A stretch of DNA of 30,410 nt, taken from positions 1 to 30,410 of the IMG/VR virus record IMGVR_UViG_3300020401_000062, one strand, 5' to 3'. The DNA is from a virus. Below, one piece after another: positions 1-27,937 of the stretch; positions within the stretch are counted from its first letter, which is position 1, and every line of letters starts with the position of its first letter. Both the position numbers and the translations under genes were made by a program. The notes below the pieces were generated by a model. That model saw only the letters and a list, made by a program, of their open reading frames with translations. It was not told the DNA's origin and searched no databases.

Positions 1-3000
1 CAGGTTCCATAGCTGTATATATATGATCCATTTTTTGTACAATTCTATCAGCAGGTAAATTTGTTCCTGCAGATATAACTTTACCAACTGCTAAAAATCC
101 AGGGTTTTCTAAACTTAATCCTTCTGTAAATATTTTTTCTTTTGACTGCTTATATGTAAATGTTTTACCAGCAGATTCAAGTTTTCTTAATTTAGAATTT
201 ATAGGTGGTGATAAAGATGTAGCCTCTATAGCAAGTTTTGAATAATCAGGTCTTGATTTTTTAGATTCTTCTATAGTTCTAATAATCAAATTTTTAACTG
301 TTGCTGCAGCAGCTCCATATACTCCAATACCTCTTAGTAATGTATCAACACTACTATTACCTATTCTAAAGTATCTTGATTTTTCTTTATCCTCTTCTTC
401 ATCATCAAATAACAGCGCAAATAGCCCTTGTTGTAAAGCAGAGAATATAATATTCTGTATTACACTATAATACGCAATCTTACTTATATTTGTCTTCCAA
501 TCTCCTCTTCCATTAATTAAATCTAACGTAGCCTTTTTTGTAAGCCTTGCATATTGCATTGGAGTGTTACCAAACGCTAATATAAGTCTACCTAAAGAAC
601 CAGCTTGTTGCATAGATATTCTATCAGGCCTAGCAGATTGTTGTGTTTCTTCTGCTATTTCTTGAAAGTCTGTAAATGCTCTTTGTTCTGCTTCTGATTG
701 ACTTAATCCTTGTTTTTTATATTTGTTTATTCTATTTCTATAAAATGTAGCACCCCCTGAAGCAATTGCAAATGAGTCAGCTATTTGTGTTGGTGTAAAT
801 CCAAACTTAAGTATTGCGGCTAACATTGCTCTTGCTTTATTTTTAGATGTCGCAGCAGCATTAGCAATTTCATCAGCATTTACATCAGTTTGTAAACCAG
901 ATCTTCTTTGTTTTAAGAAATCAGAATTAAATAATGTTACAAAGTCTTTAACATATTGTGGAAAATTAGCTAAAGCCAACGCAGCATTTATAGGATTATT
1001 ATCACTAAAGTTTATAAAGTTAACAGCAGATAATGTTTGCAGTACAGCAGATCTAGCATTAAAGAACATGATTGCCCCAACAGAATTGTTTGTCCAATTC
1101 ATAAATGTTTTTTCAGCATCACTTGCGTCTTTAAATCTATTTCTTCCGTTTTCCATACGATAAAGCATATTATCTAAAGCTTTAACATATGAATCTCCAT
1201 ACAATGCTCTTAACTTATTTTTGTTTTCTTTTGTAAATATCTGATCTACATTTTCTTTCCAATTCGTTAAATATTCTTTTCTTTTAACATCGTTCACATA
1301 TGAAACAAGGTCTGTAGTAATATCTCCAGCTATCCAATCAACAGAAGGAGGTGGATAACCTTCAGGATTTAACGCCATTAGTCTTTCTGCAAAAGCTTTT
1401 AACTTAGGATCATTATTAACTATTTTAATATTTTCTCTTACTTCTTTTTTACTAATGCCTTCAATATTTATTTTTTGGCGTTGCCACATATAAATTCTTA
1501 ATGAATTTTGATTAGTAAATCCAGTTTCATTTGTTTTATTTAATCCTCCAGGTACATCTTTTTTAGCTAGTCTTTTTAGTACCATCCAATCACGTAAAGA
1601 TTTTTGTTTTGCAGCTTCATATTTTTGAATACCGCGAGAGAATGGCCTAATTAAATTTTCTTCGTACCATTTCATTTGCTGGTCTCCAACTTTACCTTTA
1701 CCTAAAGTAGCATATAATAAACCAACAAAATCATCTGCTGAATAAGGTATAAAGAATTTTTTACCTTTACCTTTACCTAATAGTTTAGCTTTGACAGGTG
1801 AAAATGTAGTATAAAACGGTACGCCTGTTGTGTCTTGTATCAGTTCATTAAACTCTTTATCTAATGATCTTGAAAACTGTATTGTTCCTTTATTATTATA
1901 TTTTTCAAAAATATTTTCTGAATCATCAAACCATTCTTGATTAGCGGTATCAATACCTCCGTCAATTGCAGAAACTTTTTCATTTAAATATCTTTGCCAC
2001 CAAAAGTTTTTATACGGATCCCATTTTTTGCCATTAATTAAAGGCATTTCATTTTTTAACCCCGCCTTGTCTAATTTAATATTTTCTTCTTTAGATAAAC
2101 CTATTATTGTATAATTATCTTTTATAGCTTCTAAATCTTTATTAAATTGTTCTTGATTTTTAGTTGTTGCAGATTCTAATAAAAATTCAAGAGCAAATGA
2201 AACAGGTACTGCGTGTTCCCATTGAATTTTTCCAGATTTATTTTTACCTATTGAAACTACACGAGCGCCTAATGCATGAGGATGATTTCTTTCATTTATT
2301 GCAGTTACTACAGAATAGTAAATAGCCATTTTATGTTCTTTTAATTCAGGATCATTCAAAGCTTTATAAACAAAGTCCCAATATTCGTTCATCATTATGC
2401 TATTTTTCAAATTATAAAAGTCAATATATTCTTTGCTTGCATTTCTTAATGTTTCAAATTTTCCACTGAATGTATCAGAAGCTTTTGATTTACCATACAC
2501 TTTTGCAGATTTTCCAGTAATAGGATTTATTTTGGTTTCTGAAACGCCAAAAAGTTCTTTTAAATTTGTTTTTGCAAATTTTTTATCAAAATATTTTTCC
2601 TTAGAAAACATTTTTCCATTAGTAAATTCAAGATTTGATTTAAACCTAATTGTGCTTTTATTTAACAGCCCTTTCTTATAATAAGGTCTTTTAACCATTG
2701 CTTCAACCCCTGCTAAATATTTGTTTACGTCTTTTTCAGTAGTAAGATCATAGTATTCAGCGTTATTTTTTTCAGCCCAACTTATGTTATCACCTTTAGC
2801 AAATTGAAAACCAATAGGCCTACCTATTTTTGCACTAATTTGTTCTATATAGTCTTGTGGTAATTTTATACCTTGTAAGTCAGCTATGTCTTTAACTTTT
2901 TGTAAAATATTAGGATCAGCTAAAACTTCCATTGTAGCATCAAAAGCAAATGCTTCTGCAACAGCTTCAACTATTGCTGTTTTTCTTGTTCCTTGTGTAG

Positions 3001-5926
3001 ATCTACCAACATTATCACCTAAAAAATATTTTATAAACTCAGCTTTAGATATTTTTTTCTTAGTAAATATTTTATTTCCCTCAGCTGTTTTTTCTCTTTT
3101 TTGTTTTCCATCTTTATCTAATACTGGTTCAGCAAACTCTTTTAATCTTCTATTAAATATAGATTGAGGCAATGAATTATATATTGTTTCAAAATTATCA
3201 CGTAAAAAAGATTCATATGCTTCTCCTTTACCAAATAATTTAGATATTGGCTTTTTAAGTTCTGTTCTGAAACTTTTTTCTAATTGTTTAAGAAAAGTTT
3301 TTTCATTAACATTAGGCAATCTAGTTCCAAATATTTTTCTTACCGCATTAAAAACAACTGGTTTTATTTCATCGCCAATACCCATTTTTTTGCGTAAGCT
3401 TTGTAATTCTTTACTTGGCTCTTCTTTTACTATTTCTGTTTGTTGTTCTGTTGTAGTATCAGTTACGCCTTTTGCTTCTGTTACATCTAAAGTAAATTCT
3501 GTACCTAATATTCTTTGCGCAGCTTCAATAGCTCTTGCAGGTAAAAATTTATTTATATAAGCAGCTAAGGGAGCGCCATTGGCTTTTTCAGGAGTGTAAG
3601 ACATTATCATATCAAGAATACCTCTTTTACCGGTTTCTACCTCATCTCTTAATAACTCAAATTCAAAGCCAGGAACATTTTTATATTTGTTTACAATTCT
3701 ATTTGTTATAGGCTTAAACTCATCAATTATATCCATTGCATTTGCTGCGCCCTGAGATTCATATATTTCTTGAACTTTATCAGAAGAAGATTTAGAAAGC
3801 TGATATGTTTCATTTCTTACTTCTGCTCCTATGTTAATTATATCTTGATTAAGCTGTCCTTTTTCTATTGATTTATTATATTCCTTTAAAAAATTATATA
3901 CATCTCTACCTGTATTAAATTTAATTTTACTAAATCCAAATTTTCTTAATATAGGCCTTATAAAATCACCTATTTTAGTAAATAAATTTTCTTCATACTG
4001 GATTTGATTTAAATTAATAGCATCGGAGTATGCAGTAAAAAACTCGTCACCTAAAACTATTTCAGCTTCGGTATATTTTTTATCTTTTAATTTTTTATTA
4101 ATAATACTAACTTGTTCTTCGCCAATTATTTTTTTAAACTGATCTAATAATAATTGTCTATCTTTTCCTTTTAAAGCTCTGTTTAATATAGTGTGCAAAA
4201 GTTCATGACTTCCTACACTTACCGCTACATCTTTAACAGCTACATCTTTATTTATAATTATTTCACCAGTTTCAGGATCAACAAAACCTTGAGCTTTTAT
4301 AATCTCATTAATTTGTTTTTGTGTTTTTCCTTTATATTTTTCTTTAAGTTCTTTTATTGTTAAAGATTTAACACCAGCAAGACCTAATTTTTCAGCTCCT
4401 TTTTCTGCAAAAGAAATAGATTCTTGTAAAAATAATTCAGAAAGTTGTTTTTCTATTTCATCAACTCTTTGTTGTTCTTTTTTAGTAACTATTTTTTCAT
4501 CTACAAACTTTATTTTTTGTTTTAATTCTTCTCTTTCTTTAAATAAATCTATTGTTTTATTTCTATTTTCAAGATTATTACCAGATCTATTAATTATTTC
4601 ATTAGCAACTTTAGTTCTAGAAAAATTATTTAATATTTCTTCTCCTTGTTCTTTTGTTAATTCTTTATTTTTAACTCTTCTAATAACTTCTTCTTCTATT
4701 AATTCATCAGATCTTTTTATCGATGTAATTATAGTTGAGGTATCATTTGTTTCGGTTTGATTTAAAAAGAAGTCAGATATATTTTTAAAATCAGTATTTT
4801 TTAATTCTTTATTTATTTTTATTCTATCAATATTTTTACCTATGCTTCCGGCTTGTCTAGTTAATGTTACAGGTGCTGAACCTAAGCCTGCAAATGCTTC
4901 AAAACCTATTTCAGCTACATCCATTTCTTGGCCAGCTACAAACCTACCTGCAACTTCACCTAAACCACCTCCTGTAACTTCGATTGCACCTGCAGTTCCA
5001 AGTCCAAGTAATGGCGCCCCTCTGAATCCTGCTGAAGCTATTTTACCACCAACACCTGCAGCTAATCCCATTGTGGCTAATTCAATAGCGCCAATAGTTA
5101 TACCTCTGCCTAATGCTTTATTTTTTAAATCTGCTAATTCTTCACCATTCTGTAAAAACGCTCTTACATTTTCAATAGTTAATTCTTCACCTATTTTTTC
5201 ATTAAGTAATTCAGAAAACGTTAAACCTGTTTCTAATGCAGACATAGCACCACTCATTGCGCCAGCTATACCACCTCCTATAGTACCAACTGGCCCCCCA
5301 ATAAAAGTACCTGCGGTAGCACCTGTAGCTAAGCCAGCTGTAGCAGCTGTAGCAACCTCGTCAGATTGTAATGAGCCAATTTGCATTGCAATTGAACTTA
5401 CTAATTCTTGTGTTAATACACTAGGATTATTAGCCGCTCCTTTTATAAATCCCCACCAGCCACCGCCGGCTTCTTCATATATTCTATTAAAGTCACGCAT
5501 TTCATCAGATTGCATGACATTTTGTTGGAAATCTTTATTAGCGTTTATATAGTTAAGTATAGTTTCATCATCAGCATCTTCTCCTGCTCTAAATAAGTCT
5601 ATGCTAGGATCTGTTAGTGAAGCTTGTTGTAAACCTTTTTGTGCTGATCTATATATATCACCAAAAAAATCAGTTAAAGAATTTTTTCCAAAGGCTCTTT
5701 CAATTGCTGTGTCTTTCTCTTGTGAATCCGAAAAAAAACTTCCCGAACTGGAAGCCATAACGGGTGTAATATTTACCTCTGCAGGTGCACCCGGATTCTT
5801 CCCCGGCAGAGGAGGCAACTTTCCCACGCTTACTAATTTAGCGTTTGGATATTTTTGCAAAAAACTATTTACCTTTTCATCAGGTAAATTATATGTTTTT
5901 CCATTTTGTAGCGTATAAATAGGCAT
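1..5926 (-). CDS. Giant ejection/internal virion-like protein with zincin motif (C-terminus beyond window)
   Basis: I read this frame triplet by triplet from the ATG at 5926 to the window edge and found no stop: 1975 codons, with the C-terminus missing. The start lies 8 bases after the previous stop, behind an A/T-rich leader. Visible parts: a short N-terminal module (residues 1-32, beginning MPIYTLQNGKTYNLPDEKV); two Ala/Gly-rich hydrophobic stretches (about 191-228 and 275-350) that could insert in membrane; a Lys/Glu-rich probable coiled coil (about 420-560); and HELLH at 574-578 with a possible third zinc ligand E628 in DEFFTAY, which is a gluzincin-like layout. Later come WEHAVP (1236-1241), a lysine/glycine-rich GKGKGKKFF stretch, and long helical regions. 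Its place after two ejection-type genes matches T7 gp16, but no transglycosylase motif was seen. The likely role is a protein packaged in the head and injected with DNA, perhaps self-cleaving or attacking a host protein. The role is inferred; the ORF itself is certain. Confidence 0.85.
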   Translation of the reverse strand, partial: MPIYTLQNGKTYNLPDEKVNSFLQKYPNAKLVSVGKLPPLPGKNPGAPAEVNITPVMASSSGSFFSDSQEKDTAIERAFGKNSLTDFFGDIYRSAQKGLQQASLTDPSIDLFRAGEDADDETILNYINANKDFQQNVMQSDEMRDFNRIYEEAGGGWWGFIKGAANNPSVLTQELVSSIAMQIGSLQSDEVATAATAGLATGATAGTFIGGPVGTIGGGIAGAMSGAMSALETGLTFSELLNEKIGEELTIENVRAFLQNGEELADLKNKALGRGITIGAIELATMGLAAGVGGKIASAGFRGAPLLGLGTAGAIEVTGGGLGEVAGRFVAGQEMDVAEIGFEAFAGLGSAPVTLTRQAGSIGKNIDRIKINKELKNTDFKNISDFFLNQTETNDTSTIITSIKRSDELIEEEVIRRVKNKELTKEQGEEILNNFSRTKVANEIINRSGNNLENRNKTIDLFKEREELKQKIKFVDEKIVTKKEQQRVDEIEKQLSELFLQESISFAEKGAEKLGLAGVKSLTIKELKEKYKGKTQKQINEIIKAQGFVDPETGEIIINKDVAVKDVAVSVGSHELLHTILNRALKGKDRQLLLDQFKKIIGEEQVSIINKKLKDKKYTEAEIVLGDEFFTAYSDAINLNQIQYEENLFTKIGDFIRPILRKFGFSKIKFNTGRDVYNFLKEYNKSIEKGQLNQDIINIGAEVRNETYQLSKSSSDKVQEIYESQGAANAMDIIDEFKPITNRIVNKYKNVPGFEFELLRDEVETGKRGILDMIMSYTPEKANGAPLAAYINKFLPARAIEAAQRILGTEFTLDVTEAKGVTDTTTEQQTEIVKEEPSKELQSLRKKMGIGDEIKPVVFNAVRKIFGTRLPNVNEKTFLKQLEKSFRTELKKPISKLFGKGEAYESFLRDNFETIYNSLPQSIFNRRLKEFAEPVLDKDGKQKREKTAEGNKIFTKKKISKAEFIKYFLGDNVGRSTQGTRKTAIVEAVAEAFAFDATMEVLADPNILQKVKDIADLQGIKLPQDYIEQISAKIGRPIGFQFAKGDNISWAEKNNAEYYDLTTEKDVNKYLAGVEAMVKRPYYKKGLLNKSTIRFKSNLEFTNGKMFSKEKYFDKKFAKTNLKELFGVSETKINPITGKSAKVYGKSKASDTFSGKFETLRNASKEYIDFYNLKNSIMMNEYWDFVYKALNDPELKEHKMAIYYSVVTAINERNHPHALGARVVSIGKNKSGKIQWEHAVPVSFALEFLLESATTKNQEQFNKDLEAIKDNYTIIGLSKEENIKLDKAGLKNEMPLINGKKWDPYKNFWWQRYLNEKVSAIDGGIDTANQEWFDDSENIFEKYNNKGTIQFSRSLDKEFNELIQDTTGVPFYTTFSPVKAKLLGKGKGKKFFIPYSADDFVGLLYATLGKGKVGDQQMKWYEENLIRPFSRGIQKYEAAKQKSLRDWMVLKRLAKKDVPGGLNKTNETGFTNQNSLRIYMWQRQKINIEGISKKEVRENIKIVNNDPKLKAFAERLMALNPEGYPPPSVDWIAGDITTDLVSYVNDVKRKEYLTNWKENVDQIFTKENKNKLRALYGDSYVKALDNMLYRMENGRNRFKDASDAEKTFMNWTNNSVGAIMFFNARSAVLQTLSAVNFINFSDNNPINAALALANFPQYVKDFVTLFNSDFLKQRRSGLQTDVNADEIANAAATSKNKARAMLAAILKFGFTPTQIADSFAIASGGATFYRNRINKYKKQGLSQSEAEQRAFTDFQEIAEETQQSARPDRISMQQAGSLGRLILAFGNTPMQYARLTKKATLDLINGRGDWKTNISKIAYYSVIQNIIFSALQQGLFALLFDDEEEDKEKSRYFRIGNSSVDTLLRGIGVYGAAAATVKNLIIRTIEESKKSRPDYSKLAIEATSLSPPINSKLRKLESAGKTFTYKQSKEKIFTEGLSLENPGFLAVGKVISAGTNLPADRIVQKMDHIYTAMEP
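1691..1777. repeat. Short TTTACC hexamer runs inside the giant ORF
   Basis: TTTACC occurs twice in a row at 1691-1702 and three times at 1760-1777. On the coding (minus) strand this is GGTAAA, which encodes the Gly-Lys repeats in the giant protein. It is a small microsatellite-like tract and probably only reflects a basic linker, but it is a possible slippage site. Confidence 0.6.
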
Positions 5927-5934
5927 ATTTAAAT

Positions 5935-7518
5935 TTATTTTATTCTTGATCTTGATATTGTTTCGCTTACTTGTTCAGGTCTTGTAGATTCTTTTTGAAT
6001 TTTGTCTAATACAGAATCTCTTTTTGATTGTTTATTCAATTGTGCAAAAGCAATTTCATTTTGTGTTTTTTGTATATCTTCAGCTGTAATACTATTTGTT
6101 TCAAATTCAGAAAATTCATCTTTATCATCATTAGTGCTATCTTCTTTTTCAGAAGTTGGAAAATATTTAAGTGTATCTGTTGTAGTATATCCATATAAAT
6201 CTCTAATAAATTTAGCAATTGAAGCACCTGTAGTTTCGCCTACTGTAAAAGGCTTTATTTTTCCGTTAACCTCTATTGCATATGAATTTTCTACTAATTC
6301 ACCATCAGAATTTCTTTGTTGATATATTTCAATGCCTGGTATATTTTCGTTTGCATAACTAATCATTTGCTGAGTTGTATTAGCATCAATTGCGGTATTA
6401 GGCAATCCTTTAAATAAAGGTTTTAAAAGCATTGATGTTGCTAATAGCTCATTTTGTTTAAGAGCATATTCAATTTCAAATTGTCTAGGTTCTTTTGTTG
6501 ATGTTGTTTTTTGCTTAGCTTTATTAACTCTGTCATATTCTACTTTTAAATTTTTTGAAGTATTAGCAGCAACGGTTTTATATTGATCTTTTACTCTTTC
6601 TACAAAATCATTAGGTAATTGTATATTTTTAAAAGATTGTATATATTCATCTTTATCAATAGTACCATCATTATTAAAATCTGTAGCTTCTTCGTCTGTT
6701 AATTTTTTAAATGTAGTAGCTAACTCACCGTTAGGCCCACCCATTTTTAAAAAATCCATAGCCAACCCTAAAGCTTGATCAGGCTTTAAATTAAGATTTC
6801 TAAAATAATCATCAACTCTTCCTTGCAAATAAGCACTATCTTCAAAATCTTCTCCTCCTCCAATAAACATTCCACTTTTTGAAGCGCCTTCCATCAGTTT
6901 AATAATGTCCTTTTCTATTTTATTATGAGCTTCGTAATCTTTAGTTCTTAATTCAGGCAAATCATCAAAAGCAACTTCTTCACCAGTTTGTGCACTTTTA
7001 AAATACATTTTACCATTCTTAAATACAGGCACACCGTTTAATTGTACAATATCATTTATTAAAGATTTTTCAGATGAGGTTAATGCGTCAGAAAAATCAT
7101 CATTTTCAGATATTTCTTTATATGCTTCTGAATATTGTTTTAAAGCAGCAATAGAATTTTGTAGTTGATTAATTTTTGTTTTTTGTCCATTTAATTCATC
7201 CATATACTGGAACTGGTCCATTTCACCTCTTTGATTAACCAATAATTTATTTGCTTCTTTTATATTTAAAGCTTCTTGGTTATACCATCCTTTCCATGCT
7301 TCGGGTACTCCGTCGGTTTGTAAAGCACCTAAGCTAGCATAGTCTTTTAGTTTAATTAGTTCTTCTCTATTTTTTTCTTGCTTTAATCTTTCTGCTTCAG
7401 CTTTTCTTTCTTCAAGCGCGGATTTAAATTTTTGTGCACCTTTTTCTATGGCATTGCTTACGCTAACATATCTGTCTGCTGCCATACCAGCGCCTCTTAT
7501 TAATGCTAAATTTGCCAT
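5935..7518 (-). CDS. Probable internal virion (ejection) protein with an EF-hand loop, 527 aa
   Basis: This protein is not recognised by a specific family name. It is mostly helical and charged. Residues 22-60 are rich in Lys, Glu and Ala and probably form a coiled coil, and another coiled coil is likely around 90-140. Residues 280-291 read D-F-N-N-D-G-T-I-D-K-D-E, an exact 12-residue EF-hand calcium loop (D1, N3, D5, G6, I8, D9, E12). The C-terminal 70 residues are polar and look disordered. It starts 1 base after the stop of the 237-aa gene and ends 8 bases before the giant ORF, so the three are surely co-expressed. Size and position match T7 gp15-type ejection proteins, and this role is inferred from order alone. 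The leader is A/T-rich with no Shine-Dalgarno. Confidence 0.8.
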   Translation of the reverse strand: MANLALIRGAGMAADRYVSVSNAIEKGAQKFKSALEERKAEAERLKQEKNREELIKLKDYASLGALQTDGVPEAWKGWYNQEALNIKEANKLLVNQRGEMDQFQYMDELNGQKTKINQLQNSIAALKQYSEAYKEISENDDFSDALTSSEKSLINDIVQLNGVPVFKNGKMYFKSAQTGEEVAFDDLPELRTKDYEAHNKIEKDIIKLMEGASKSGMFIGGGEDFEDSAYLQGRVDDYFRNLNLKPDQALGLAMDFLKMGGPNGELATTFKKLTDEEATDFNNDGTIDKDEYIQSFKNIQLPNDFVERVKDQYKTVAANTSKNLKVEYDRVNKAKQKTTSTKEPRQFEIEYALKQNELLATSMLLKPLFKGLPNTAIDANTTQQMISYANENIPGIEIYQQRNSDGELVENSYAIEVNGKIKPFTVGETTGASIAKFIRDLYGYTTTDTLKYFPTSEKEDSTNDDKDEFSEFETNSITAEDIQKTQNEIAFAQLNKQSKRDSVLDKIQKESTRPEQVSETISRSRIK

Positions 7519-7519
7519 A

Positions 7520-8233
7520 TTATTTTAATTTTTTTAAATAAGTAAAATTGCTAACCCCCTCTTTAAATTTTTTACTAGCTTCAGGATCTACTAATTTATC
7601 AGTAACCGCTTCTTTGACTTTATCAGCAGCTCCTCCTACAGGAAAGGCAGCTCCTGCGGCTCCACCTATTCCTTCAGCAATACCACCTACTAAGTCTTGG
7701 GTAGCTTGTTGTCTTGCTAAATTTGCAGCCGCAACTCTTTGTTGTGACATACCAAGTAATGTCTCTTGTCTATCAAACTCCTGTTGTTGTACAAACTGAT
7801 TTCCTTGTGCTCTTGCAGCCTCTAATCTTTGTTGTCCTTGTGCTCTAGCTATTTGATTTGCTCGCTCTTGTTGACCTATACTAGCAGCGGAAGCCTGTAA
7901 ATTTTGAGCTTGTTGCCCTGCCATTGCTTGTGCTAATGCAGCAATACCTGAACTACCAGCAGCCCCTTGCAAGTTAGACATAGTTCCCGCTAGTGCTTGT
8001 TGCTGTTGTTGAGCAGCAAAATTAGCTGCCTGAGTATTAACAGTTAAATCCTCAAAAGGATTTGTCATTTGATCAGCTGGATTAGTAAACTCAAAAGACT
8101 CATAATCACTTTGTCTTTGGGCCATTTCAGCTTTAGCAGCCTGTTGCTCTCTTCTTCTTTTACCTCCTCCGACTATAGAAGCTCCTGCTTTTATTAGCCC
8201 GGGTAATGCGGCTGCTATTATTGGTAATGCCAT
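7520..8233 (-). CDS. Ala/Gln-rich probable internal virion protein (gp14-like position), 237 aa
   Basis: The N-terminus (residues 1-23, ALPIIAAALPGLIKAGASIVGG) is hydrophobic and glycine-containing. It is followed by a basic KRRREQQ and a long Ala/Gln-rich helical middle (about 65-175), where Q and A make up most positions. A second Gly/Ala-rich hydrophobic segment lies at about 182-200 (GGIAEGIGGAAGAAFPVGG), and the C-terminus is charged. This composition, at the start of a three-gene block with a large protein at the end, is typical of the small ejection protein of podoviruses that forms a membrane pore. The function is inferred from composition and order. It follows the 107-aa gene after 12 bases. 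Confidence 0.8.
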   Translation of the reverse strand: MALPIIAAALPGLIKAGASIVGGGKRRREQQAAKAEMAQRQSDYESFEFTNPADQMTNPFEDLTVNTQAANFAAQQQQQALAGTMSNLQGAAGSSGIAALAQAMAGQQAQNLQASAASIGQQERANQIARAQGQQRLEAARAQGNQFVQQQEFDRQETLLGMSQQRVAAANLARQQATQDLVGGIAEGIGGAAGAAFPVGGAADKVKEAVTDKLVDPEASKKFKEGVSNFTYLKKLK

Positions 8234-8245
8234 AATATTATATTT

Positions 8246-8569
8246 TTAATTACTACTTATATTTACTTCAGAGTTTACAGCAAATAATTCAGTAAAATCT
8301 GTTGAATCGTTTTCTAATGTTACACTAGCATGGTAACCTATTAATCCACTAGTATTTATTACATTATTTTTAGCAAACATAAAGAAACTATCAGCAGCGG
8401 GCCTAATGTTAGTATCAGGAATATCCGCAACTAAAGATTTTCTATCCTCTGCTATATCAATGCATTCTCCTAGCTCAGCAATGCTGTTGTTGTTTTCAAA
8501 ATAAACTACATCCCCAACTTGTAAAGAATCGTTTAATTTATCGTTAAAAGATATTGTTATATAAGCCAT
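8246..8569 (-). CDS. Small virion-associated protein of unknown function, 107 aa
   Basis: This is a compact, probably all-beta protein without Cys or membrane segments. Two features stand out: LQVGDVVYF (16-24), a small-barrel-type turn, and a C-terminal half in which FAKNNVINTSGLIGYHASVT leads to ELFAVNSEVNISSN. I recall similar C-terminal patterns (an N-x-SGL-GY stretch, then ELF-V-SE) in small proteins of marine phages, where the function is not known to me. It starts 4 bases after the stop of the 3074-aa tail gene and precedes the ejection block, so a small tail or adaptor component is likely. The start ATG at 8569 has an AT-rich leader (ACCTTAATAAA). Confidence 0.75.
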   Translation of the reverse strand: MAYITISFNDKLNDSLQVGDVVYFENNNSIAELGECIDIAEDRKSLVADIPDTNIRPAADSFFMFAKNNVINTSGLIGYHASVTLENDSTDFTELFAVNSEVNISSN

Positions 8570-8573
8570 TTTA

Positions 8574-11500
8574 TTAAGGTTCTATTGATGAATTAAATTT
8601 AGGATCATACAATTTAAAAGTACCGTGTGTTTCTTTAGTTTGTTGTTGTGAGAAAGCATCAACAATGAAACCATTTTGCACTTTAATAGTTAAAGGTATA
8701 TATTTATGATAAACTTCCGCATCTAAATGTTTTATAACAACAACTCTGTCTTCTGATTTTGTTGGAAGCGATGGTAAGAAGTCTGTATTATTTCTTGGCT
8801 TACCATTTCTTTTAAATGGATCAACAATAAAGAAATTAGCATATTCATTTTCAGTTACCATTATATTAACAAAACCATTTTGTACTAAATTAAATGCGTC
8901 TTTTGATCTACCTTGTATTATTAAAGCACCTGATCCTCCATTTGTTCTTTTAAATAATTTAGACTGACCCGCTCTTACATATTTACCACTAAACAATCCA
9001 TCTCTTTCTGTGGTTATTGCATAATAAAATCCTATATCATTTGTATCAACAGGGTATTGTTTATAACCAGAAGTACCGTGATATACTTTTTCATTAGTTC
9101 TTGAATTACCTGTATAATAATTTGTATAAACATCAGGACCTCTATAAATTAACGTATCCTTATATGTTTTAAAGTTTTCATCAGGATTATTATTAAATGT
9201 TGTTGTGTAAACTTTTGGATTATTCTGTTGTCTTTTTATAAATGAAAACCTAAAGTTACTACTTACTTCAGTAATTTGAGGTCGCTTACTTGTATCTTTT
9301 GATGAAGCTGAACTACTAGATGTACCAACTTGTTTTGGTGCTGTTTGATTACTGCTTTGTGAATTAAATCTAGCATTTTCAAATATGTTACTCATTTCAG
9401 CTTCATATCTTTGAGAATCCTGTTGAGTAAAATTAGAAAGTGCAGGCGTTGATGTAGCGAATTTATTACAAACAAATGTATCATCAAAATTAGGAGCACT
9501 GCTGTTTATTACTCTAAATGTTGTTTTAGTCCATATTGTTTTATCTGCAGCTGATTTTAAAAAGAATGATTGTATTTTTGAATCTATAACTTCAACATCA
9601 TTAGATGAATTTCCTTGTAACGTAGCAGCTATATCCCAAGTTTTAGATGTAAATTCTTGTACATGAACATTAAAATCAATAGTGCTACAATCTATGCTAT
9701 ACACATTTCCGCTTGGCGTTGTATTTGATATTGTTTGAGGAGTAATATCAAATATTTGTAATACAGTACCTCTTGAATTTAGTACCATACCTTTTGTTCC
9801 GCTTATTCTATAATAACCAGATTTAGCTAATGATTTACCGTTGCTTGTAGTAAATATTTTATTACCTACAGCAGGAGTTGGTGTTATACCATCATGCCAG
9901 TAATCTATATTTATATTTGAAAGTGGCACAACCTCTGCTAATGCTTTTGAGCTTTTAGAACTACTTGCTGTAAAATCAATATAAACAGGGTTTGCAGCTG
10001 ATGAGCTTGGCTGTGTTAAAGCCGCCTGTGTTGCTGTTACTGATGTTGGTTTTGGTGAAGAAGATACTGTAGAGGATGAATTAGTATTTGCTGTTTGTTT
10101 TAAGCTTCCATCGTTAACACCTGATTGAACTAATTTTCCTTTATAATATATATCTACATAAATTTTAGCTCTTCTTTTTGATGAATTAGGATTACCCCAT
10201 CCAGCAACACTAAATTCAACAGGATCACCTCCAGTTAGAATTGCTGTTTTATCGTCATGATCATCAGACACTACGCCTGTTGTTTTGTGAAGTCTAACAA
10301 ATCTTCCATAATCAAGTAAATCATCAGCATCAATATCAACGTAAGCCCTCCAAGTTAGCTGGCTTTTGTCATAGTTAAATCCATTTGAATACTTAGGAGT
10401 TACAACTTTTGAATATACAGCTAAATATCCCCTGCCACCTCCTTGGTTTATTGTACTTAATTGTCCGTTTGATTTTTTAACAAAATTACTAAGGCCCATT
10501 AAATCAGAACCAAATCGCCAAGTAACATTATCATCTACAAATGGCCATGCATCCTGGCTATCAGGAATACCGTCACCATCTGAATCAATTATAGGTACCA
10601 CAAACTTAGCTATTTCAACATTTATATTAGCTCTTGCTCTATTGTAATTTGATGTTTCAGCAATAACAACACCAACCTTACCATTTCCTTCTCCTGTAGC
10701 AGTAATTGAAGAACCATTTAATGTCATTATATTATTATATGATGTAAAATAACTTAATACTCCACCACTATTTGTTGTAATATATAAACTTAAATCGTCA
10801 GTATCACCTTCTGTTAATTGAACTAATAATGTTGAAACAGTTGGGTTAGCTTTCTTAACAGTTATTGTAATTGTTTTTTCAGCATATTCATATAATGTTC
10901 TTGTACTAGCTACATATACTTCTTCTGAATATACTTTTATTTTATTAACACCTGTTGGTGGCGTTTGTCCAGTATTGCTTTTTAATATACCATCACTAAC
11001 ACCAACAACTCCTGTTCCTGATATTAATTCATATTTTAATTTAGAATGATTATTATTAACTACGGCGCCAATTTTAATTGTACCATCACCATATGTTGAA
11101 ATAATATTATTAGCTGTAATCACTGTAGGTACTGTTGTTGTGCAATTTTGTATATCTTTTATATAGTCGATAGAAGTAATAAAATCTTTTTTTAACGTTA
11201 TTACAAAATCTGTATTATCTATTTTATACTCATTTTCTAATGATGTTATGCCGCTTGTTGCGCCAATTTGATTAGAATTTATTTGTGTAATTCTAGCTCC
11301 TATTTTAGGTGTTGGATCATAAGGATCAATATTATATAATCTATATTCTATTGTTGGTTGTGTAGTTCCACACCCTCCCTGTTTAAGTTTTATTACAGTA
11401 AATAATTCTTCAGTAGCAAAATCAAACTCTATTCTACCAATTACTTTATCAGGAACACTATTTATATTAGCCAATATATTTAATGTTAATTCAGTTTTAT

Positions 11501-14500
11501 CTGTGTTAATTTCTATATGATCAGTAACAGTTATAGAATTACCATTTATATCTGTATAAGTGCCTGCTGTAGCTAAACTTAATTCATTGTCTAATAAATT
11601 TACAACATGACCTGTAGCTGAAAATATTTTTGTAAAATCAGGACCTGTCCTATCTATTGTAAATGTTTTTTGAAATAAAAAGTTTTGATTTGATGTATCT
11701 GTTAATTTACCTAAAATTAATTTATTAGTAAATAATCTATCTTCATTATCTAATGGAGTATAGGATATACTATAATTACCAGCAGGAACAGTTGCAGATT
11801 GTGTTATAGTTTTATTAGGTCTTATAAAAATAGTTTGACTAGAAGATGGTAAATTGAAATCACTAGGAATAAGTCTTACTAATAAATTATTATTTTCTAT
11901 TAATACTTTTAATGTACCATTTTCTGCATATGTAGAAGTAACGTCATTTAAAGAATCTGATATTATAAAATCTTGACTACTAATATTATTTATAAACTCA
12001 TAACCTCCTGAAGGTGATATTACAAATTGATAAAAATTTTCTGTAGTTGCAATATTTAAAGCAGCGCCTGTTATTTGAAAAGGAATAGAAGGTGTAAAAG
12101 AATAATTACCTGTTCCTGCACCTGCTAAAGTTGTATTAGCATATTCTATATCTAATGTAACTTGTTCATTAACAAAACTGTCTAAAAATAAAACTATTTG
12201 ATTTGAAGTACTTATTTTATCAACTTCTATATTACCAGTTAATGTTATTTTATTATTTCCTTGATCTAAACTTAAAAATAAATTTGAAAGCCTAGGATCA
12301 TCAATTTTATTATCGTAAGCAAAATCACTTGCTTGTGGTTGTGATATTAATAAATATGTAGCGGCAGGTAAAGTTATTTCATGAGTAAAGCTATAAGAAA
12401 TCCCATCATTAGTAAATGCTTGAAATTCATTAACATTGCTTGTAGTATTTTTAAATTGAGAAAATAAACTTATTTTATTTATTTGTTTAGCGCTATATGG
12501 AATTATAATAACATCTTCAAAGTCTGGGCCATTTATAGTATCTCCTGTAGGTGTTATTGTTATAGTATATGTATCTGGTGAATTTGGGGGTAATACTACT
12601 TGCCTATTGTATTTACCTGTATTATCTATAACTATATTAAATTCTGTTTCTTCAAAAGATCCTGTATCTTGAAGTTTAAAAGAAAACTCAGCGCCTGGAT
12701 TTCCTGTTATTTCTAAATCTCTAACTAATATATCGTTTACAGCATCATTAGTGTTAATTTGAGAAAACAGTAATTGTTTTTTAGCTTTTTGAATTTGTAT
12801 TTCATCAACAGTAATAATATAATTAAAATTATTATTATCAGCGCTTGGAATTGTTATTTTTTCAGTTATAGTAACACTTGTATCATCTGTATTATTAGAT
12901 TTAACAGTTAAGTCAACATTAGGATTATTAGATCTTATACTATTAATATCTACTTTAAATCCGCTTTTAGCTGTAACTGTTCTAGTAACCACTGTTTTTA
13001 AAACATTTGGAGGCCCTGTAATAGTAAAATTACCATTTGGTATATCTGAATCAATATATTTATTTGGTTCAAAAGCATGAGCACCTGTAACTGTTATTGT
13101 TTTTTTATTTGCAAAATTTACTTTGCATAAAGAAATATCAATATGTTTATTTTTAGTAGGTTGGAATGCAATACCATGCGTATAATCTAAAACTATATTG
13201 TCTCCACTTTGTGTAGCTGTAATATTTTTAGCAGAAAAGCTATTTGCATTTAATACATAACCTGGTTTAGGTGATATAATTATTTCAGCTGTATTATTTA
13301 AAGCTGTACCAGCTATATTACTAATTTTAGTTATTTTAGATAAATAGCTATTAGTTTCAATAGGCAAAATACCAAATGTTAATTCTGTTGATGTGCCAGA
13401 ACCAATTGCTGAAATATCACTAGAAACACCTAGGCCCTGAAAGTTAAAGTTTTTAGGATCTAAGTTTTCAACTGTTTTTTCTTCACCCTTTATAAAAGAA
13501 AAATACTTATTTTCTTTTTCTTTAAAGTTCATAGTAGAAGACTTTTGTTGATCTGTTATAACTTCAGCTGTCCACCCTTTAGTACCTTCATAAGATAAAG
13601 TTCTATACTTTTTAATTACAGAAGGATCATCATTAATTTCAAGTTCTATTTTAGATGTATATTGTACACCATAAAAATTATTATATAAAGCGTCTCTTGC
13701 ATCTTGCTCCCAAAGTTCACCATTTCTATATGTATAATATATATTATTTAATGATAAACCGTTTTCAGGAATAAATGATTTTCTTGTTACCCATCCATTA
13801 ACAGTTTCATCAAAACAAACAGTATCTAAACCGTCAAATGATATATTATATAAATTATTATAATTATCATAAGAGCCTATTATGTTAGTGTTAACAGGAG
13901 TTGCATGATAACAACCGTCATCAAAAAATCTTTCTTTAAAAAAGTTAGTCATAAAGTATCTACTAATAACTTCAAGGCCGTCCTTAGATAATCTTATAAC
14001 TACACCTCTTGTTTTATCAGCAAAATAACATCTAAAACCATAAGAGGCAAAACTTTCTGGATTTTTAGATATACCATATTCACCAGCATAAGGACTTACT
14101 GCACCAATTACTTTATTTGTTGCAACTACATTAGGGCTTCCATCTGCATTATATAATATATCTTTATCAGCTAACGCTCTTACTATTTTATCTTCACAAA
14201 GCATTACAATTTGATCATCCCACGCATGAAGCTTTTGAATGCTACCATAAGAAGGTAATAAATCTTTTGTTATAGGAAAAGCTATATTAAATTCATTAGA
14301 TTTATTTACACCTGATTTAGAATTAACAATACCAGACCATATAACACCATTAAACCTATGCTCTTCTCTTATTTCTTCCGCAATAGTAGCTGATACTTTT
14401 ACTCCATTATCTATAAAAGGAGCATTGAAGTCGTCTCTAATCCTATTAGACTCAACACCATTACCAAAACAAAAAGCATTATACCATTCTAGTTTTTGTA

Positions 14501-17500
14501 AATTACCATGCTCTGCTATTTCAAAAGCTCTTTCAGTTTCATAGTAAATATCTAAATCTGTTTTGCTTTCTTTTGGTTCAGTTTCAAATATAGCTGGATC
14601 TTCTGTAAAAGTTATTTTACCTGTTTTTTCTTCTACAAATAATATGTCTACTGAGTTATTTTGATCACCATACTTGGGTATTGCAGCTTTTAATTGACTA
14701 GCTGTAATTGCTTTTCTTAATGGGTCATCTGCAACAAATATTGAAACTTCTCTAGTTCCTACAGCATTTGCTTTTTCAAATTTATTCCCGCGTCCTCCAA
14801 CTTCAATTACTGTATTACCTTTAATTGATTTTTCAATTTCATATATTGTATCCTTATCATTTGAAAAATAAAATTTAGCACCATTAACAAATAAGTCTAA
14901 ATATTTATCATCAACTTTTGTATTTAATTCTTCTACTTTAAAAGTATAATTTGATGCTGTACCATTATGACTTAAAAATAAAGGATACTTTGGATTTTCA
15001 TCAATTTTTCTAGGAGGTCTTGTTCTTTTATCTTTCTTTTTATCTGAAAAAATAGGTGTTCCAAATAAAGTTAATTTTTCTAATATTGAATAATCTTTAT
15101 TATTTACAGTATCTCCTTCAAATATAGTTTTTAATAAATTATTTGCTTTTAATTTAACAAAAAATCTACCATCAAACTCTTCGTTTTTATAATCTGAAAA
15201 TTTTTCTAATATAGTTATTCTTACACCTAATCTATAATTATTAGGATTATAAAGTGCTGTTGAAGCATCACCTACATTTCCAGATCTATCATATATAATA
15301 TTTACGTCGTCGTTAAAGCTATCTTTTATAGTTATTTCAATTTCAGTGGAATCTTCTCTATCAGCAGAAATAGATTTTATTTCATAAGGTTGAGATTCTT
15401 TTCCATTAAAATCAAATCTTATAAATCTACCTGGCTTTAATTCATTTACTAAATTACCAGGAACTCCAACGTTATTACTGTCGTCAGGATCAATACCAGC
15501 ATTTGTTCTTTTAATTTGTATTTTTGAATAATTAGCAACTGGTGTAGAATTTTCAGTTTTTACTTGTGTTAAAGTACCACCGCTGCTATTTGTATTATAA
15601 CCGGAAGTAAATAAAACATCGTCTAAAGAACTTATAACTTTCTTTTTATCAGCAACAAAATTTGGTGGCTCATTAAATATTTCAATAACCTTATACCTAT
15701 TATCAGAATCTGTTACAGCTAAATTTGTACCATGCTCTTTTTTAAGTATAATAAACTCATCTTTATTTACTTTGTTTCTTTCGTTAGATGAAAAAGAAAC
15801 ATACATAAAGCCATTTTGGTCATCATAATAAAACCGGTCTGCAGCAATATTATAATATTCACCGGAATTATCCTTAATATAATATTTGAAATATTTAGCC
15901 CAAGCTGGCGGGTTGTTTTTTAAACGTATTTCAAACTGTTTTGTTTCTTGTGTTTTATCTTTAGATATATTTATTGAACCAGATTGGTCAGATAATACAG
16001 GAGAATGTCTATTATATTCATCTATATAAGCTACACCTATTTGATATGTTCTATCAGATTTTATTGTTTTTTTGTTTGAATTTACATTTCTTTTTGTATA
16101 AGAAATACCAAATTCAGGTGTATTGTATATATCGTAATTTTGTGTATAATTACCATAAATAATTCTATTTGCGGTAACAGCCTGAGCTTTTGCTTTTTTA
16201 GGTACATTGTCCCATGCTCTAAGCAGCTGATCGTTTGGTAAAACAGAATGTATTCTTTCTTTTGTTATTTCATAACTATTATTAAAATCAATACGTTTAA
16301 ATGATTTTAAAGTATATATATTTTGATTTCTAGTTTCTTTATATAATATTTCTATTTCTTTTACAGTATCATCACCTAAATCAAAATCATTTAATATAAC
16401 TTTTCTTAGGTCATTTTCCATTCCTAAGTTTAAACCTTCTTTAGCATTATATTGATATTCCTGAGGTAAAAAAGCAGTTTCAGAAAAAGGAGACATTGTA
16501 GAATATTCACCGTCAAAATATTTCCATCTATATCCAAATCTTACAAATGAAAGTTCATGAATTGCTTTCTTTTCAACTAAAGCAATACTCATTCTATAAT
16601 TTATATTTTTTACAGGTTTATAACTTCTACTAGTTAATGTTATTATAATTTTTGAAGTAAGTTTTTGCTTTACAATTGCTGTAGCTTCTAAAAATTCACC
16701 AGTGCCATCATCTGTATAGGAACTTAATTCTAAATCATCACCTTCATTCCAATTTGGTAATGTAGTTAAATTGTCAATAGTTAAATTATCACCTATTCCA
16801 ATTTCTTTATCTCCGTTATTAGATGTTACATAAAAACTAATTATTTTTTCTATTTCAGTAACACCAGTTATTAATGAATTATATAAATCTAATGTAGGCG
16901 CTTTCATTGGCGCTTTCTTTGCAACCGATAAATCATCTTCATTAAATTCTCTAGTAGCATTAACTATATTGCCATTAGAATCTTTTTCTGAATATTGAAC
17001 TAATGTTTGTGTTAAAAAAACACCGTTTGTATTTGGATATGGAGTATTTGTGTATTTTTTAAATTTAGAAATATTTATTTTTCTAGGGGCATTTAAGTTA
17101 TCTGTAAAAAATAACATATCATCAATTATATCAATGCCTGTTATAAGATTGTTTTTAGAAAAATTTAATACACTCTTTATTGAAAAGCTAAATGTTATAG
17201 ATATATTACCATATTCTTGGCCATTATATTCTATATTTTTAAATACATATTTATTGTTTTCCTTTCTTAATATAGTGTTTTGCGGTATATCTATATCTAA
17301 ATAAGGATCTTGCGAAGATAAATGTATATTATTATTTACTAATACCTCATCTATTGTGTCATCTGGAATATTGCCACATATTGTTTTTAATTGATTAGCT
17401 GTAATATTATTTAATACTAATTCATTTTCATCATTAGACTGCAAAGACAGTCCATTAATTATATCTTCACTATTTCTTTTTGTATCTATAATTATAGGCT

Positions 17501-17798
17501 CAATTACTTTTTGAACTTGATCATATTCATAAATACCATCAATATTATCAGAAGTTATTATCCAATAAATTTTATCTTTAAGACCATAAGTAATTGACCC
17601 AATTGTTTGAGCATTTTTAAGGCCTAAATCAGTTAATTGTTTATTTCCTAATAAATTTTCAACTGCTCCAACGTCAGATCCCTCAGAAGAAGAAATGTGT
17701 ATATTTAAAGCATCACGATAAGTGCCATTTTTTACAAGGCGCTCATCCCTATCTTTATCCATCATTCCGGCTATAAACGTGTGTTTTAACTCAGCCAT
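8574..17798 (-). CDS. Giant tail protein: stabilisation module fused to Ig-like and Ca-binding tail region, 3074 aa
   Basis: Residues 1 to about 1480 look like the tail stabilisation or needle-type protein of crAss-like and marine podoviruses. The start carries NGTYRDALNIHISSSEGSD; the middle carries a conserved-looking SPYAGEYGISKNPESFASYG followed by RGVVIRLS (about 1230-1270); the end of the module carries SYEGTKGW (W1409) and neighbouring beta structure. Residues of about 1480-2400 are a long series of beta-rich, probably Ig-like segments, ending with one near 2306-2400. D-S-D-G-D-G-I-P-D-S-Q-D (2405-2416) is a thrombospondin type 3-like calcium loop. Two Ser/Thr-rich linkers follow (about 2570-2613 and 2816-2840) before the C-terminal domain. 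In most relatives I know of, the first part is a separate gene of around 1000 residues or more. The likely role is closing the portal, building the tail and reaching the host surface. The module names are inferred from pattern; the single uninterrupted frame is seen directly. Confidence 0.85.
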   Translation of the reverse strand: MAELKHTFIAGMMDKDRDERLVKNGTYRDALNIHISSSEGSDVGAVENLLGNKQLTDLGLKNAQTIGSITYGLKDKIYWIITSDNIDGIYEYDQVQKVIEPIIIDTKRNSEDIINGLSLQSNDENELVLNNITANQLKTICGNIPDDTIDEVLVNNNIHLSSQDPYLDIDIPQNTILRKENNKYVFKNIEYNGQEYGNISITFSFSIKSVLNFSKNNLITGIDIIDDMLFFTDNLNAPRKINISKFKKYTNTPYPNTNGVFLTQTLVQYSEKDSNGNIVNATREFNEDDLSVAKKAPMKAPTLDLYNSLITGVTEIEKIISFYVTSNNGDKEIGIGDNLTIDNLTTLPNWNEGDDLELSSYTDDGTGEFLEATAIVKQKLTSKIIITLTSRSYKPVKNINYRMSIALVEKKAIHELSFVRFGYRWKYFDGEYSTMSPFSETAFLPQEYQYNAKEGLNLGMENDLRKVILNDFDLGDDTVKEIEILYKETRNQNIYTLKSFKRIDFNNSYEITKERIHSVLPNDQLLRAWDNVPKKAKAQAVTANRIIYGNYTQNYDIYNTPEFGISYTKRNVNSNKKTIKSDRTYQIGVAYIDEYNRHSPVLSDQSGSINISKDKTQETKQFEIRLKNNPPAWAKYFKYYIKDNSGEYYNIAADRFYYDDQNGFMYVSFSSNERNKVNKDEFIILKKEHGTNLAVTDSDNRYKVIEIFNEPPNFVADKKKVISSLDDVLFTSGYNTNSSGGTLTQVKTENSTPVANYSKIQIKRTNAGIDPDDSNNVGVPGNLVNELKPGRFIRFDFNGKESQPYEIKSISADREDSTEIEITIKDSFNDDVNIIYDRSGNVGDASTALYNPNNYRLGVRITILEKFSDYKNEEFDGRFFVKLKANNLLKTIFEGDTVNNKDYSILEKLTLFGTPIFSDKKKDKRTRPPRKIDENPKYPLFLSHNGTASNYTFKVEELNTKVDDKYLDLFVNGAKFYFSNDKDTIYEIEKSIKGNTVIEVGGRGNKFEKANAVGTREVSIFVADDPLRKAITASQLKAAIPKYGDQNNSVDILFVEEKTGKITFTEDPAIFETEPKESKTDLDIYYETERAFEIAEHGNLQKLEWYNAFCFGNGVESNRIRDDFNAPFIDNGVKVSATIAEEIREEHRFNGVIWSGIVNSKSGVNKSNEFNIAFPITKDLLPSYGSIQKLHAWDDQIVMLCEDKIVRALADKDILYNADGSPNVVATNKVIGAVSPYAGEYGISKNPESFASYGFRCYFADKTRGVVIRLSKDGLEVISRYFMTNFFKERFFDDGCYHATPVNTNIIGSYDNYNNLYNISFDGLDTVCFDETVNGWVTRKSFIPENGLSLNNIYYTYRNGELWEQDARDALYNNFYGVQYTSKIELEINDDPSVIKKYRTLSYEGTKGWTAEVITDQQKSSTMNFKEKENKYFSFIKGEEKTVENLDPKNFNFQGLGVSSDISAIGSGTSTELTFGILPIETNSYLSKITKISNIAGTALNNTAEIIISPKPGYVLNANSFSAKNITATQSGDNIVLDYTHGIAFQPTKNKHIDISLCKVNFANKKTITVTGAHAFEPNKYIDSDIPNGNFTITGPPNVLKTVVTRTVTAKSGFKVDINSIRSNNPNVDLTVKSNNTDDTSVTITEKITIPSADNNNFNYIITVDEIQIQKAKKQLLFSQINTNDAVNDILVRDLEITGNPGAEFSFKLQDTGSFEETEFNIVIDNTGKYNRQVVLPPNSPDTYTITITPTGDTINGPDFEDVIIIPYSAKQINKISLFSQFKNTTSNVNEFQAFTNDGISYSFTHEITLPAATYLLISQPQASDFAYDNKIDDPRLSNLFLSLDQGNNKITLTGNIEVDKISTSNQIVLFLDSFVNEQVTLDIEYANTTLAGAGTGNYSFTPSIPFQITGAALNIATTENFYQFVISPSGGYEFINNISSQDFIISDSLNDVTSTYAENGTLKVLIENNNLLVRLIPSDFNLPSSSQTIFIRPNKTITQSATVPAGNYSISYTPLDNEDRLFTNKLILGKLTDTSNQNFLFQKTFTIDRTGPDFTKIFSATGHVVNLLDNELSLATAGTYTDINGNSITVTDHIEINTDKTELTLNILANINSVPDKVIGRIEFDFATEELFTVIKLKQGGCGTTQPTIEYRLYNIDPYDPTPKIGARITQINSNQIGATSGITSLENEYKIDNTDFVITLKKDFITSIDYIKDIQNCTTTVPTVITANNIISTYGDGTIKIGAVVNNNHSKLKYELISGTGVVGVSDGILKSNTGQTPPTGVNKIKVYSEEVYVASTRTLYEYAEKTITITVKKANPTVSTLLVQLTEGDTDDLSLYITTNSGGVLSYFTSYNNIMTLNGSSITATGEGNGKVGVVIAETSNYNRARANINVEIAKFVVPIIDSDGDGIPDSQDAWPFVDDNVTWRFGSDLMGLSNFVKKSNGQLSTINQGGGRGYLAVYSKVVTPKYSNGFNYDKSQLTWRAYVDIDADDLLDYGRFVRLHKTTGVVSDDHDDKTAILTGGDPVEFSVAGWGNPNSSKRRAKIYVDIYYKGKLVQSGVNDGSLKQTANTNSSSTVSSSPKPTSVTATQAALTQPSSSAANPVYIDFTASSSKSSKALAEVVPLSNINIDYWHDGITPTPAVGNKIFTTSNGKSLAKSGYYRISGTKGMVLNSRGTVLQIFDITPQTISNTTPSGNVYSIDCSTIDFNVHVQEFTSKTWDIAATLQGNSSNDVEVIDSKIQSFFLKSAADKTIWTKTTFRVINSSAPNFDDTFVCNKFATSTPALSNFTQQDSQRYEAEMSNIFENARFNSQSSNQTAPKQVGTSSSSASSKDTSKRPQITEVSSNFRFSFIKRQQNNPKVYTTTFNNNPDENFKTYKDTLIYRGPDVYTNYYTGNSRTNEKVYHGTSGYKQYPVDTNDIGFYYAITTERDGLFSGKYVRAGQSKLFKRTNGGSGALIIQGRSKDAFNLVQNGFVNIMVTENEYANFFIVDPFKRNGKPRNNTDFLPSLPTKSEDRVVVIKHLDAEVYHKYIPLTIKVQNGFIVDAFSQQQTKETHGTFKLYDPKFNSSIEP

Positions 17799-27662: not shown

Positions 27663-27937
27663 TATCTAGATCTTTTTTCAGCAAACCCTGAAAAGCTATT
27701 TTTGTTTTCAACAGGTTTGTCTTCCATAATATTTTTTTCTGTTTCTATACGAGATAGTATTTCAAAAGCATCGAATATTGCAAGCTTTTTTGTTGCAGCG
27801 GCATTTTTTAATCTATCAGCAGCAAGTTCATCCTCACCGCCTTCAACAATTATTTCTTCTTCCGCTACACGTATAAGTTCATGAACAGCTTTATACCCAG
27901 CTTGTATTATATTCGACTTCAGTTCCTTTTCTTTCAT
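27662..27937 (-). CDS. Candidate small terminase subunit, 91 aa
   Basis: This small helical protein lies directly before the large terminase, with a TAATG overlap. Residues of about 6-30 (LKSNIIQAGYKAVHELIRVAEE) and 41-68 (RLKNAAATKKLAIFDAFEILSRIE) are amphipathic helices. No clear helix-turn-helix was identified. The alternation of helices and a polar C-terminus is compatible with a terminase small subunit, which recognises the packaging site, or with a terminase-binding factor. The start at 27937 is preceded by TCAATTAAAT. The gene overlaps the end of the 199-aa protein by 47 bases. Identity is inferred mainly from position. Confidence 0.6.
   Translation of the reverse strand: MKEKELKSNIIQAGYKAVHELIRVAEEEIIVEGGEDELAADRLKNAAATKKLAIFDAFEILSRIETEKNIMEDKPVENKNSFSGFAEKRSR

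What the first reader, a model, noticed from the sequence alone, without database searches (positions are those of the whole stretch)
1..5926. Giant ejection-type ORF with an HExxH zincin motif
At least 1975 codons without a stop carry HELLH at residues 574-578 and E628 in DEFFTAY about 50 residues later, the spacing expected for a gluzincin. It ends a block that resembles T7 gp14-gp15-gp16. A protease packaged with the genome could process host proteins, cleave itself, or open the envelope. I do not know of a described protein with this architecture.
Basis: partly seen in the sequence, partly recalled or inferred. Interest (0 to 1): 0.62.

Follow-up and report, generated by a model that had tools for sequence, protein, structure and literature searches.

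The report
Phage-injected giant protein: protease plus sigma-like domain
A family of uncultivated aquatic, mostly marine viruses of Bacteroidota carries in its late genes a ~2,000-residue protein, probably injected into the host with the DNA, that holds a real zinc-protease domain and, directly behind it, a domain built like the core of a bacterial sigma factor, so these phages may pack a tool that grips the host's RNA polymerase.

Summary
The minus-strand ORF 5926→2 stays open at the window edge, with HELLH at residues 574-578 and E628. Full-length relatives put the true C-terminus about 50 residues further on. In 78 full-length proteins of the family (80 relatives fetched of 297 found in IMG/VR), 0.28 HExxH motifs are expected from composition and 72 are seen. 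Across 60 non-redundant members E628 is invariant, although it was not selected for. A zincin-only AlphaFold model (pLDDT 90.7, pTM 0.87) has the zincin layout and resembles lethal-factor-type gluzincins and zincins of phage polyvalent proteins. So it is a gluzincin, of a known kind.

Support comes from structure (best match sigma70 region 2, Z 8.4), from sequence profiles whose best PDB hits are sigma factors, and from profile-profile comparison with the sigma factor that these phages encode separately (P 2e-4; 0 of 60 decoys reach it). Region 4 and the promoter-melting tryptophans are missing, so it is not a complete sigma factor.

Best reading: a polyvalent-type ejected cargo protein that combines a protease with an RNA-polymerase-binding module. 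Packaging, cleavage target and polymerase binding are inferred, not shown.

The parts
2..5926 (-). Giant late-gene ORF, at least 1975 aa (about 2,025 aa expected); putative ejected cargo protein
   Evidence: full-length relatives of about 1,880-3,300 aa
5027..5344 (-). Gly/Ala-rich hydrophobic N-terminal region, aa ~195-300 (possible membrane-active segment)
   Evidence: hydropathy peak at aa 276; aa 68-487 match phrog_32588, E 3.4e-56, function unknown
3857..4489 (-). Zincin (gluzincin-type) domain, aa ~480-690
   Evidence: AlphaFold pLDDT 90.7, pTM 0.87; structural matches; conservation
4193..4207 (-). HELLH active-site motif, aa 574-578
4043..4045 (-). E628, predicted third zinc ligand
   Evidence: 60 of 60 non-redundant members; on the downstream helix of the model
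3443..3793 (-). Sigma-70 region 2-like domain, aa 712-828 (structural core aa 711-807)
2213..2218 (-). E1237-H1238, conserved dyad in an otherwise variable module (aa ~1050-1330) of unknown function
   Evidence: invariant in A1; H invariant across 19 diverse members
2..1894 (-). Most conserved C-terminal part of the family, aa ~1345 to end; candidate packaging or ejection module
5935..7518 (-). 527-aa protein next to the giant gene (gp15-like by position; weak EF-hand match)
   Evidence: order kept in relatives
7520..8233 (-). 237-aa Ala/Gln-rich protein (gp14-like by position)
8574..17798 (-). 3074-aa tail protein with crassvirus muzzle C-terminal domain (PF25729, above cut-off)
   Evidence: E 4.3e-9, 37.1 bits against a cut-off of 27; phrog_14478 E 1.5e-140

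Best explanation
The ORF encodes a polyvalent-type virion cargo (ejection) protein of about 2,025 residues from a Bacteroidota podovirus. Its order is: N-terminal hydrophobic region, gluzincin (HELLH...E628), sigma-70 region 2-like domain, variable module with an E-H dyad, strongly conserved C-terminal part. Proposed mechanism: the protein is packed in the head, threaded through the tail in an unfolded state and refolds in the host. The zincin then cuts, most likely within the ejected polypeptides themselves, and so frees the following modules. The sigma2-like domain docks on host core RNA polymerase and steers or occupies it in the first minutes, before the phage's own separately encoded sigma factor is made. 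Shown here by computation: zincin fold and conserved ligands, sigma2-like fold and sequence relation, conserved late-gene position, a separate phage sigma gene in most long relatives, and no detected T7-like or multisubunit-type RNA polymerase. Inferred: packaging, ejection, catalytic activity, cleavage site, polymerase binding.
For: Zincin: conservation; model; lethal-factor catalytic domain entries, Z 5.2-5.6 over about 167-176 aa; Certhrax Z 6.1; best BFVD hit E 1.9e-5; several giant phage proteins annotated with large-polyvalent domains. The zincin profile also matches gp18 of the cultured Flavobacterium phage elemo (41 bits). Sigma2-like: sigma factors are the two best PDB hits, E 0.075 and 0.087; 6ca0_F Z 8.4, 2.8 A, 89 aa; sigma70, sigma28, SigK, SigA and WhiG chains in the list; one divergent member finds only two PDB entries, both sigma factors, best E 0.018; first seven hits all sigma, best E 0.013; SigK model E 8.4e-4; against the phages' own sigma: P 2e-4, score 33.2 against decoys 12.8 +/- 1.9, 0 of 60. 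Host-polymerase dependence: sigma region 4 matches in 15 of 18 records, sigma region 2 also found in those proteins, no T7-like polymerase while T7 itself rings, no Rpb1-type polymerase while controls ring. Late position.
Against: No virion proteomics was found for this family. Pfam gives no match above cut-off for either domain in this protein. Of the residues equivalent to sigma70's core-contacting set, D403 is mostly D and Q406 mostly E, but E407 is mostly T; promoter-melting W433 and W434 are not kept. Z 8.4 is modest for a helical domain by the tool's own note. Seven of 78 full-length members have no HExxH, and the six of these whose N-terminal parts were compared lack the whole domain (L050 not resolved), so the protease is not indispensable in all.
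Confidence: 0.6

Rival explanations
1. The zincin acts mainly on a host protein (a defence, transcription or envelope protein) after ejection, not on the phage polypeptide.
For: Its nearest solved relatives by fold include host-targeting toxins. Conflict roles are proposed for polyvalent-protein enzymes (PMC5512222). The neighbouring variable modules are swapped between relatives, as in conflict proteins.
Against: No substrate evidence of any kind. Processing of the multidomain polypeptide itself is the theme proposed for phage zincins of this class (PMC5512222).
Confidence: 0.3
2. The sigma2-like domain is a re-used helical scaffold (DNA binding or architectural) that no longer touches RNA polymerase.
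For: Promoter-melting tryptophans and E407 are not conserved; no region 4 in the protein.
Against: The domain, clear or diverged, is traceable behind the zincin in most members, and members without the zincin keep it. Positions equivalent to D403, G408, G411, F419 and Y430 are mostly kept.
Confidence: 0.35
3. The protease opens or remodels the cell envelope during penetration.
For: Ejection proteins cross the periplasm; the protein has hydrophobic segments.
Against: The zincin sits beside a transcription-type domain, which fits a cytoplasmic site; nothing in the fold points to an envelope substrate.
Confidence: 0.1
4. HExxH and E628 are a chance match.
For: None remaining.
Against: Conservation in 71 of 78 members, invariant E628, confident zincin fold.
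Confidence: 0.01

Closest known systems
Polyvalent proteins with zincin-like metallopeptidase domains (Iyer et al. 2017, PMC5512222)
   Same: Giant multidomain protein in the late block; zincin core with HExxH helix and downstream Glu helix; modular swapping between relatives
   Different: A sigma-70 region 2-like domain follows the zincin; the word sigma does not occur in that paper; no Pfam polyvalent domain passes its cut-off
N4 virion RNA polymerase gp50 (PMC12633501, PMC5512222)
   Same: Giant ejected protein with a conserved HExxH domain; links ejection to early transcription
   Different: N4 brings its own polymerase; here no T7-type or Rpb1-type polymerase is detected in long relatives, and a sigma2-like domain is present instead
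Crassvirus cargo proteins gp45, gp46, gp47 behind the muzzle (PMC10172136)
   Same: Muzzle-domain protein followed by mid-size proteins and one giant protein
   Different: No RNA polymerase detected; the crassvirus cargo proteins were not compared directly by sequence
Flavobacterium phage elemo gp18 (3694 aa, NC_055853, annotated structural protein)
   Same: Same position after related head and tail genes; homologous zincin (41 bits)
   Different: No sigma2-like match, and no sigma region 4 gene found in the elemo record
T7 gp16
   Same: Last and largest gene of the ejection block, by position
   Different: No sequence match; no zincin is known in gp16 (own knowledge)

Membership tests
Polyvalent proteins with zincin MPTase | Zincin core: small beta sheet, HExxH helix, downstream helix with Glu | tested here: met
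   three strands (66-69, 94-96, 103-106), HExxH on helix 118-131, Glu on helix 174-185 of the zincin-only model
Polyvalent proteins with zincin MPTase | Several distinct domains in one polypeptide | tested here: met
   zincin and sigma2-like domain; a PNK-type phosphatase domain in 5 of 19 relatives
Polyvalent proteins with zincin MPTase | Gene among late virion genes | tested here: met
   terminase, portal and major structural protein genes on the same strand
Polyvalent proteins with zincin MPTase | Match to a named polyvalent domain model | tested here: inconclusive
   no Pfam model above cut-off; fold matches to phage proteins named as large polyvalent
Polyvalent proteins with zincin MPTase | Delivered into the host with the DNA | not testable with these tools
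   needs virion proteomics or an ejection assay
Gluzincin peptidases, lethal-factor-like (M34) | HExxH plus downstream Glu ligand | tested here: met
   E628 in 60 of 60
Gluzincin peptidases, lethal-factor-like (M34) | Family-level sequence or fold match | tested here: inconclusive
   Z 5.2-5.6 to the catalytic domain, no sequence match; not filed as M34
Sigma-70 family factor | Region 2 fold and sequence signature | tested here: met
Sigma-70 family factor | Region 4 in the same protein | tested here: not met
   no Sigma70_r4 match in the Pfam scan up to E 1
Sigma-70 family factor | Promoter-melting aromatics of region 2.3 (primary sigma factors) | tested here: not met
   W433 equivalent K/S/N; W434 equivalent F/L; Y430 kept
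Sigma-70 family factor | Binds core RNA polymerase | not testable with these tools
   needs a binding assay
N4-type virion RNA polymerase | RNA polymerase domain in the ejected protein | tested here: inconclusive
   no PF00940 match in 17 long relatives while T7 rings; N4 vRNAP itself was not run as a positive control, and the window's own protein was covered only by the Pfam scan

The most novel reading that the evidence does not exclude
A virion-delivered, protease-released sigma module: the phage ejects a pre-made sigma-region-2 domain tethered behind a zinc protease. Self-cleavage in the cytoplasm frees it to seize host core RNA polymerase and start or bias phage transcription before any phage gene is expressed, doing with a sigma fragment what N4 does with a whole packaged polymerase.
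Probability: 0.2. Interest if true: 0.87.

Novelty: new variant of a known kind. Interest (0 to 1): 0.62.

Why it matters
How podoviruses without a packaged polymerase take over transcription immediately on entry is poorly known. A sigma-type domain in what is probably an ejected protein would be a new answer, and it can be tested with one purified domain. The protein family is large (297 relatives in IMG/VR) and without functional annotation. A cultured phage (Flavobacterium phage elemo) carries the homologous zincin at the same gene position, so the protease half can be tested on an isolate.

Tried and rejected
(1) Whole-protein tblastn against INPHARED: no match. (2) Pfam on the single protein: only sub-threshold hits; RTX, C19orf12, GvpK and others judged spurious. 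(3) Foldseek against PDB for both models: no hit at E 0.001, so the fold claims rest on VIA-align, BFVD and sequence profiles. (4) First PF00940 search had no positive control; repeated with T7. (5) Profile comparison of the most diverse domain set A6 with the phages' own sigma was at chance level (2 of 60 decoys reach it); A6 against bacterial ECF-type sigma factors was not (0 of 60). A2 against those bacterial factors alone was weak (1 of 60). (6) Single-sequence searches with L030 and L052 did not find sigma factors. (7) HNH nuclease considered for the E-H dyad module: no supporting match; left open. (8) HMMs of the sigma2-like domain against elemo gp18, the MW202828 giant and Panino CDS0069: no credible match. 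(9) Literature searches for a packaged or virion sigma factor found none in the open-access library held; subscription papers are not covered.

Full report
Observation. The ORF at 5926→2 on the minus strand is open at the window edge, with 1975 codons and HELLH at residues 574-578, window 4207-4193. E628 lies in GDEFFTAY. G000 is a 30,410-base viral record that ends inside the gene. Four IMG/VR relatives found first give full proteins of 2055, 2140 and 2500 aa (L002 and L005 alike) and show about 50 further C-terminal residues.

Is the motif real? A profile-guided scan found 297 relatives and 80 loci were fetched. In 78 full-length proteins composition predicts 0.28 HExxH in total; 72 were found, with 71 proteins having at least one. 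Among 60 windows below 80% identity, H574, E575 and H578 were selected for but E628 was not, and it is present in all 60. In the 53-sequence alignment A3 the four invariant columns are exactly H, E, H, E. Of the seven full-length members without HExxH, the six whose N-terminal parts were compared skip the whole domain rather than losing single residues (L016, L022, L025, L029, L071, L076); L050 was not resolved.

Fold of the protease. AlphaFold on aa 454-709 with A3 gives pLDDT 90.7 and pTM 0.87: helix, three short strands, the HExxH helix (118-131), intervening helices, and the helix bearing the Glu (174-185). VIA-align pairs it with lethal-factor catalytic-domain entries (Z 5.2-5.6, about 167-176 residues) and Certhrax (Z 6.1); lethal-factor-like similarity is also what Iyer et al. 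reported for the N4 vRNAP zincin (PMC5512222). Against viral models the best hit is an uncultured virus protein (E 1.9e-5), followed by giant phage proteins, several annotated with large-polyvalent domains. Plain Foldseek against PDB was not significant. I therefore file it as a polyvalent-type gluzincin and not as an M34 member.

The missed domain. Residues 711-807 fold as sigma-70 region 2: in the aa 440-1045 model (pLDDT 84.8) the best VIA-align row is E. coli sigma70 6ca0_F, Z 8.4, 2.8 A over 89 aa. Sigma70, SigK, sigma28, SigA and WhiG chains also appear; unrelated rows there match other model parts, mostly the N-terminal helices. Sequence evidence agrees. Profile A2 against all PDB chains puts sigma factors first and second (E 0.075, 0.087). 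The more diverse profile A6 has sigma factors as its first seven hits (best E 0.013). A single divergent member (L053) hits only two PDB sequences, both sigma factors. NCBIfam's SigK model reaches 8.4e-4 for one member. The phages encode a separate sigma factor of about 250 aa with regions 2 and 4; A2 aligns with its region 2 at P 2e-4 and score 33.2, against shuffled-column decoys of 12.8 +/- 1.9, none of 60 reaching it. Forty of 80 members have a clear copy by iterated HMM and many others a diverged copy at the same place. Not every comparison agreed: A6 with the phage sigma and A2 with bacterial ECF-type factors alone were at or near chance level.

Function of that domain. At equivalent positions D403 is D in 32 of 39 sequences, and Q406 is mostly E; E407 is mostly T; G408, G411, F419 (as Y) and Y430 are mostly kept; W433 and W434 are not. 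This fits a module that might bind core polymerase but does not melt a promoter in the usual way. That is inference.

Context. The late block reads terminase, portal, scaffold-like gene, major structural protein, adaptor-like proteins, a 3074-aa protein with the crassvirus muzzle C-terminal domain (PF25729 above cut-off), 107 aa, 237 aa, 527 aa and the giant. The last four genes keep their order in relatives. Cultured relatives by terminase and major structural protein are Flavobacterium, Cellulophaga and Maribacter phages. At the same position elemo has gp18 (3694 aa, 'structural protein'), whose zincin matches the A3 profile with 41 bits. Three Bacteroidota MAGs hold contigs of this family, which supports the host range weakly. 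No T7-type or Rpb1-type polymerase was found in 17 long relatives, with positive controls ringing.

Mechanism. The shown facts make a polyvalent-type cargo protein the best reading. Self-processing by the zincin is the likeliest use, by analogy with the theme proposed in PMC5512222, and polymerase capture by the sigma2-like domain follows from its fold. Neither is shown. I put the zincin identity at about 0.95, sigma2 relatedness about 0.85, virion cargo about 0.8, polymerase binding about 0.45 and self-cleavage about 0.4; these five are judgements.

Novelty. Zincins in giant ejected phage proteins are known. I found no report of a sigma-type domain in such a protein in the library searched, which is limited to open-access papers. 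Hence: new variant of a known kind.

Noticed in passing
L128:1459-2220(-), L127:952-1704(+), L129-L134: Relatives encode a ~250-aa sigma-70 family protein with regions 2 and 4 outside the late block; region 4 match in 15 of 18 records tested, none in elemo, MW202828 or Panino.
   Followed up: partly
window 2213-2218 and relatives: An E-H dyad is kept in the otherwise very variable module between the sigma2-like domain and the C-terminal part; function unknown.
   Followed up: partly
L020, L044, L046, L050, L052 and others: Many relatives carry a DxDxT HAD/polynucleotide-kinase-type phosphatase motif in the giant protein (phrog_415 in 5 of 19 scanned); this window's protein does not show it.
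   Followed up: no
L080:13061-13063: In one relative a single in-frame TGA splits the giant gene into 1139- and 1391-aa ORFs in the same frame; real split or sequence error not decided.
   Followed up: partly
window 8246-8569 and 8574-17798: phrog_18548 matches both the 107-aa ORF and the muzzle-domain protein (aa 1325-1461), each to a different part of the profile; possibly a muzzle domain split into a separate gene.
   Followed up: no
window 5935-7518, aa 280-297: Weak EF-hand match in the 527-aa protein beside the giant gene (E 0.026); the loop DFNNDGTIDKDEY looks like a calcium site.
   Followed up: no
window 27891-28490: GroES-like co-chaperonin gene (phrog_13932, E 1e-14) close to the terminase gene.
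   Followed up: no
window 29873-30340: M15-type peptidase endolysin (PF08291, E 1.2e-17), with a holin-like gene at 28837-29256.
   Followed up: no
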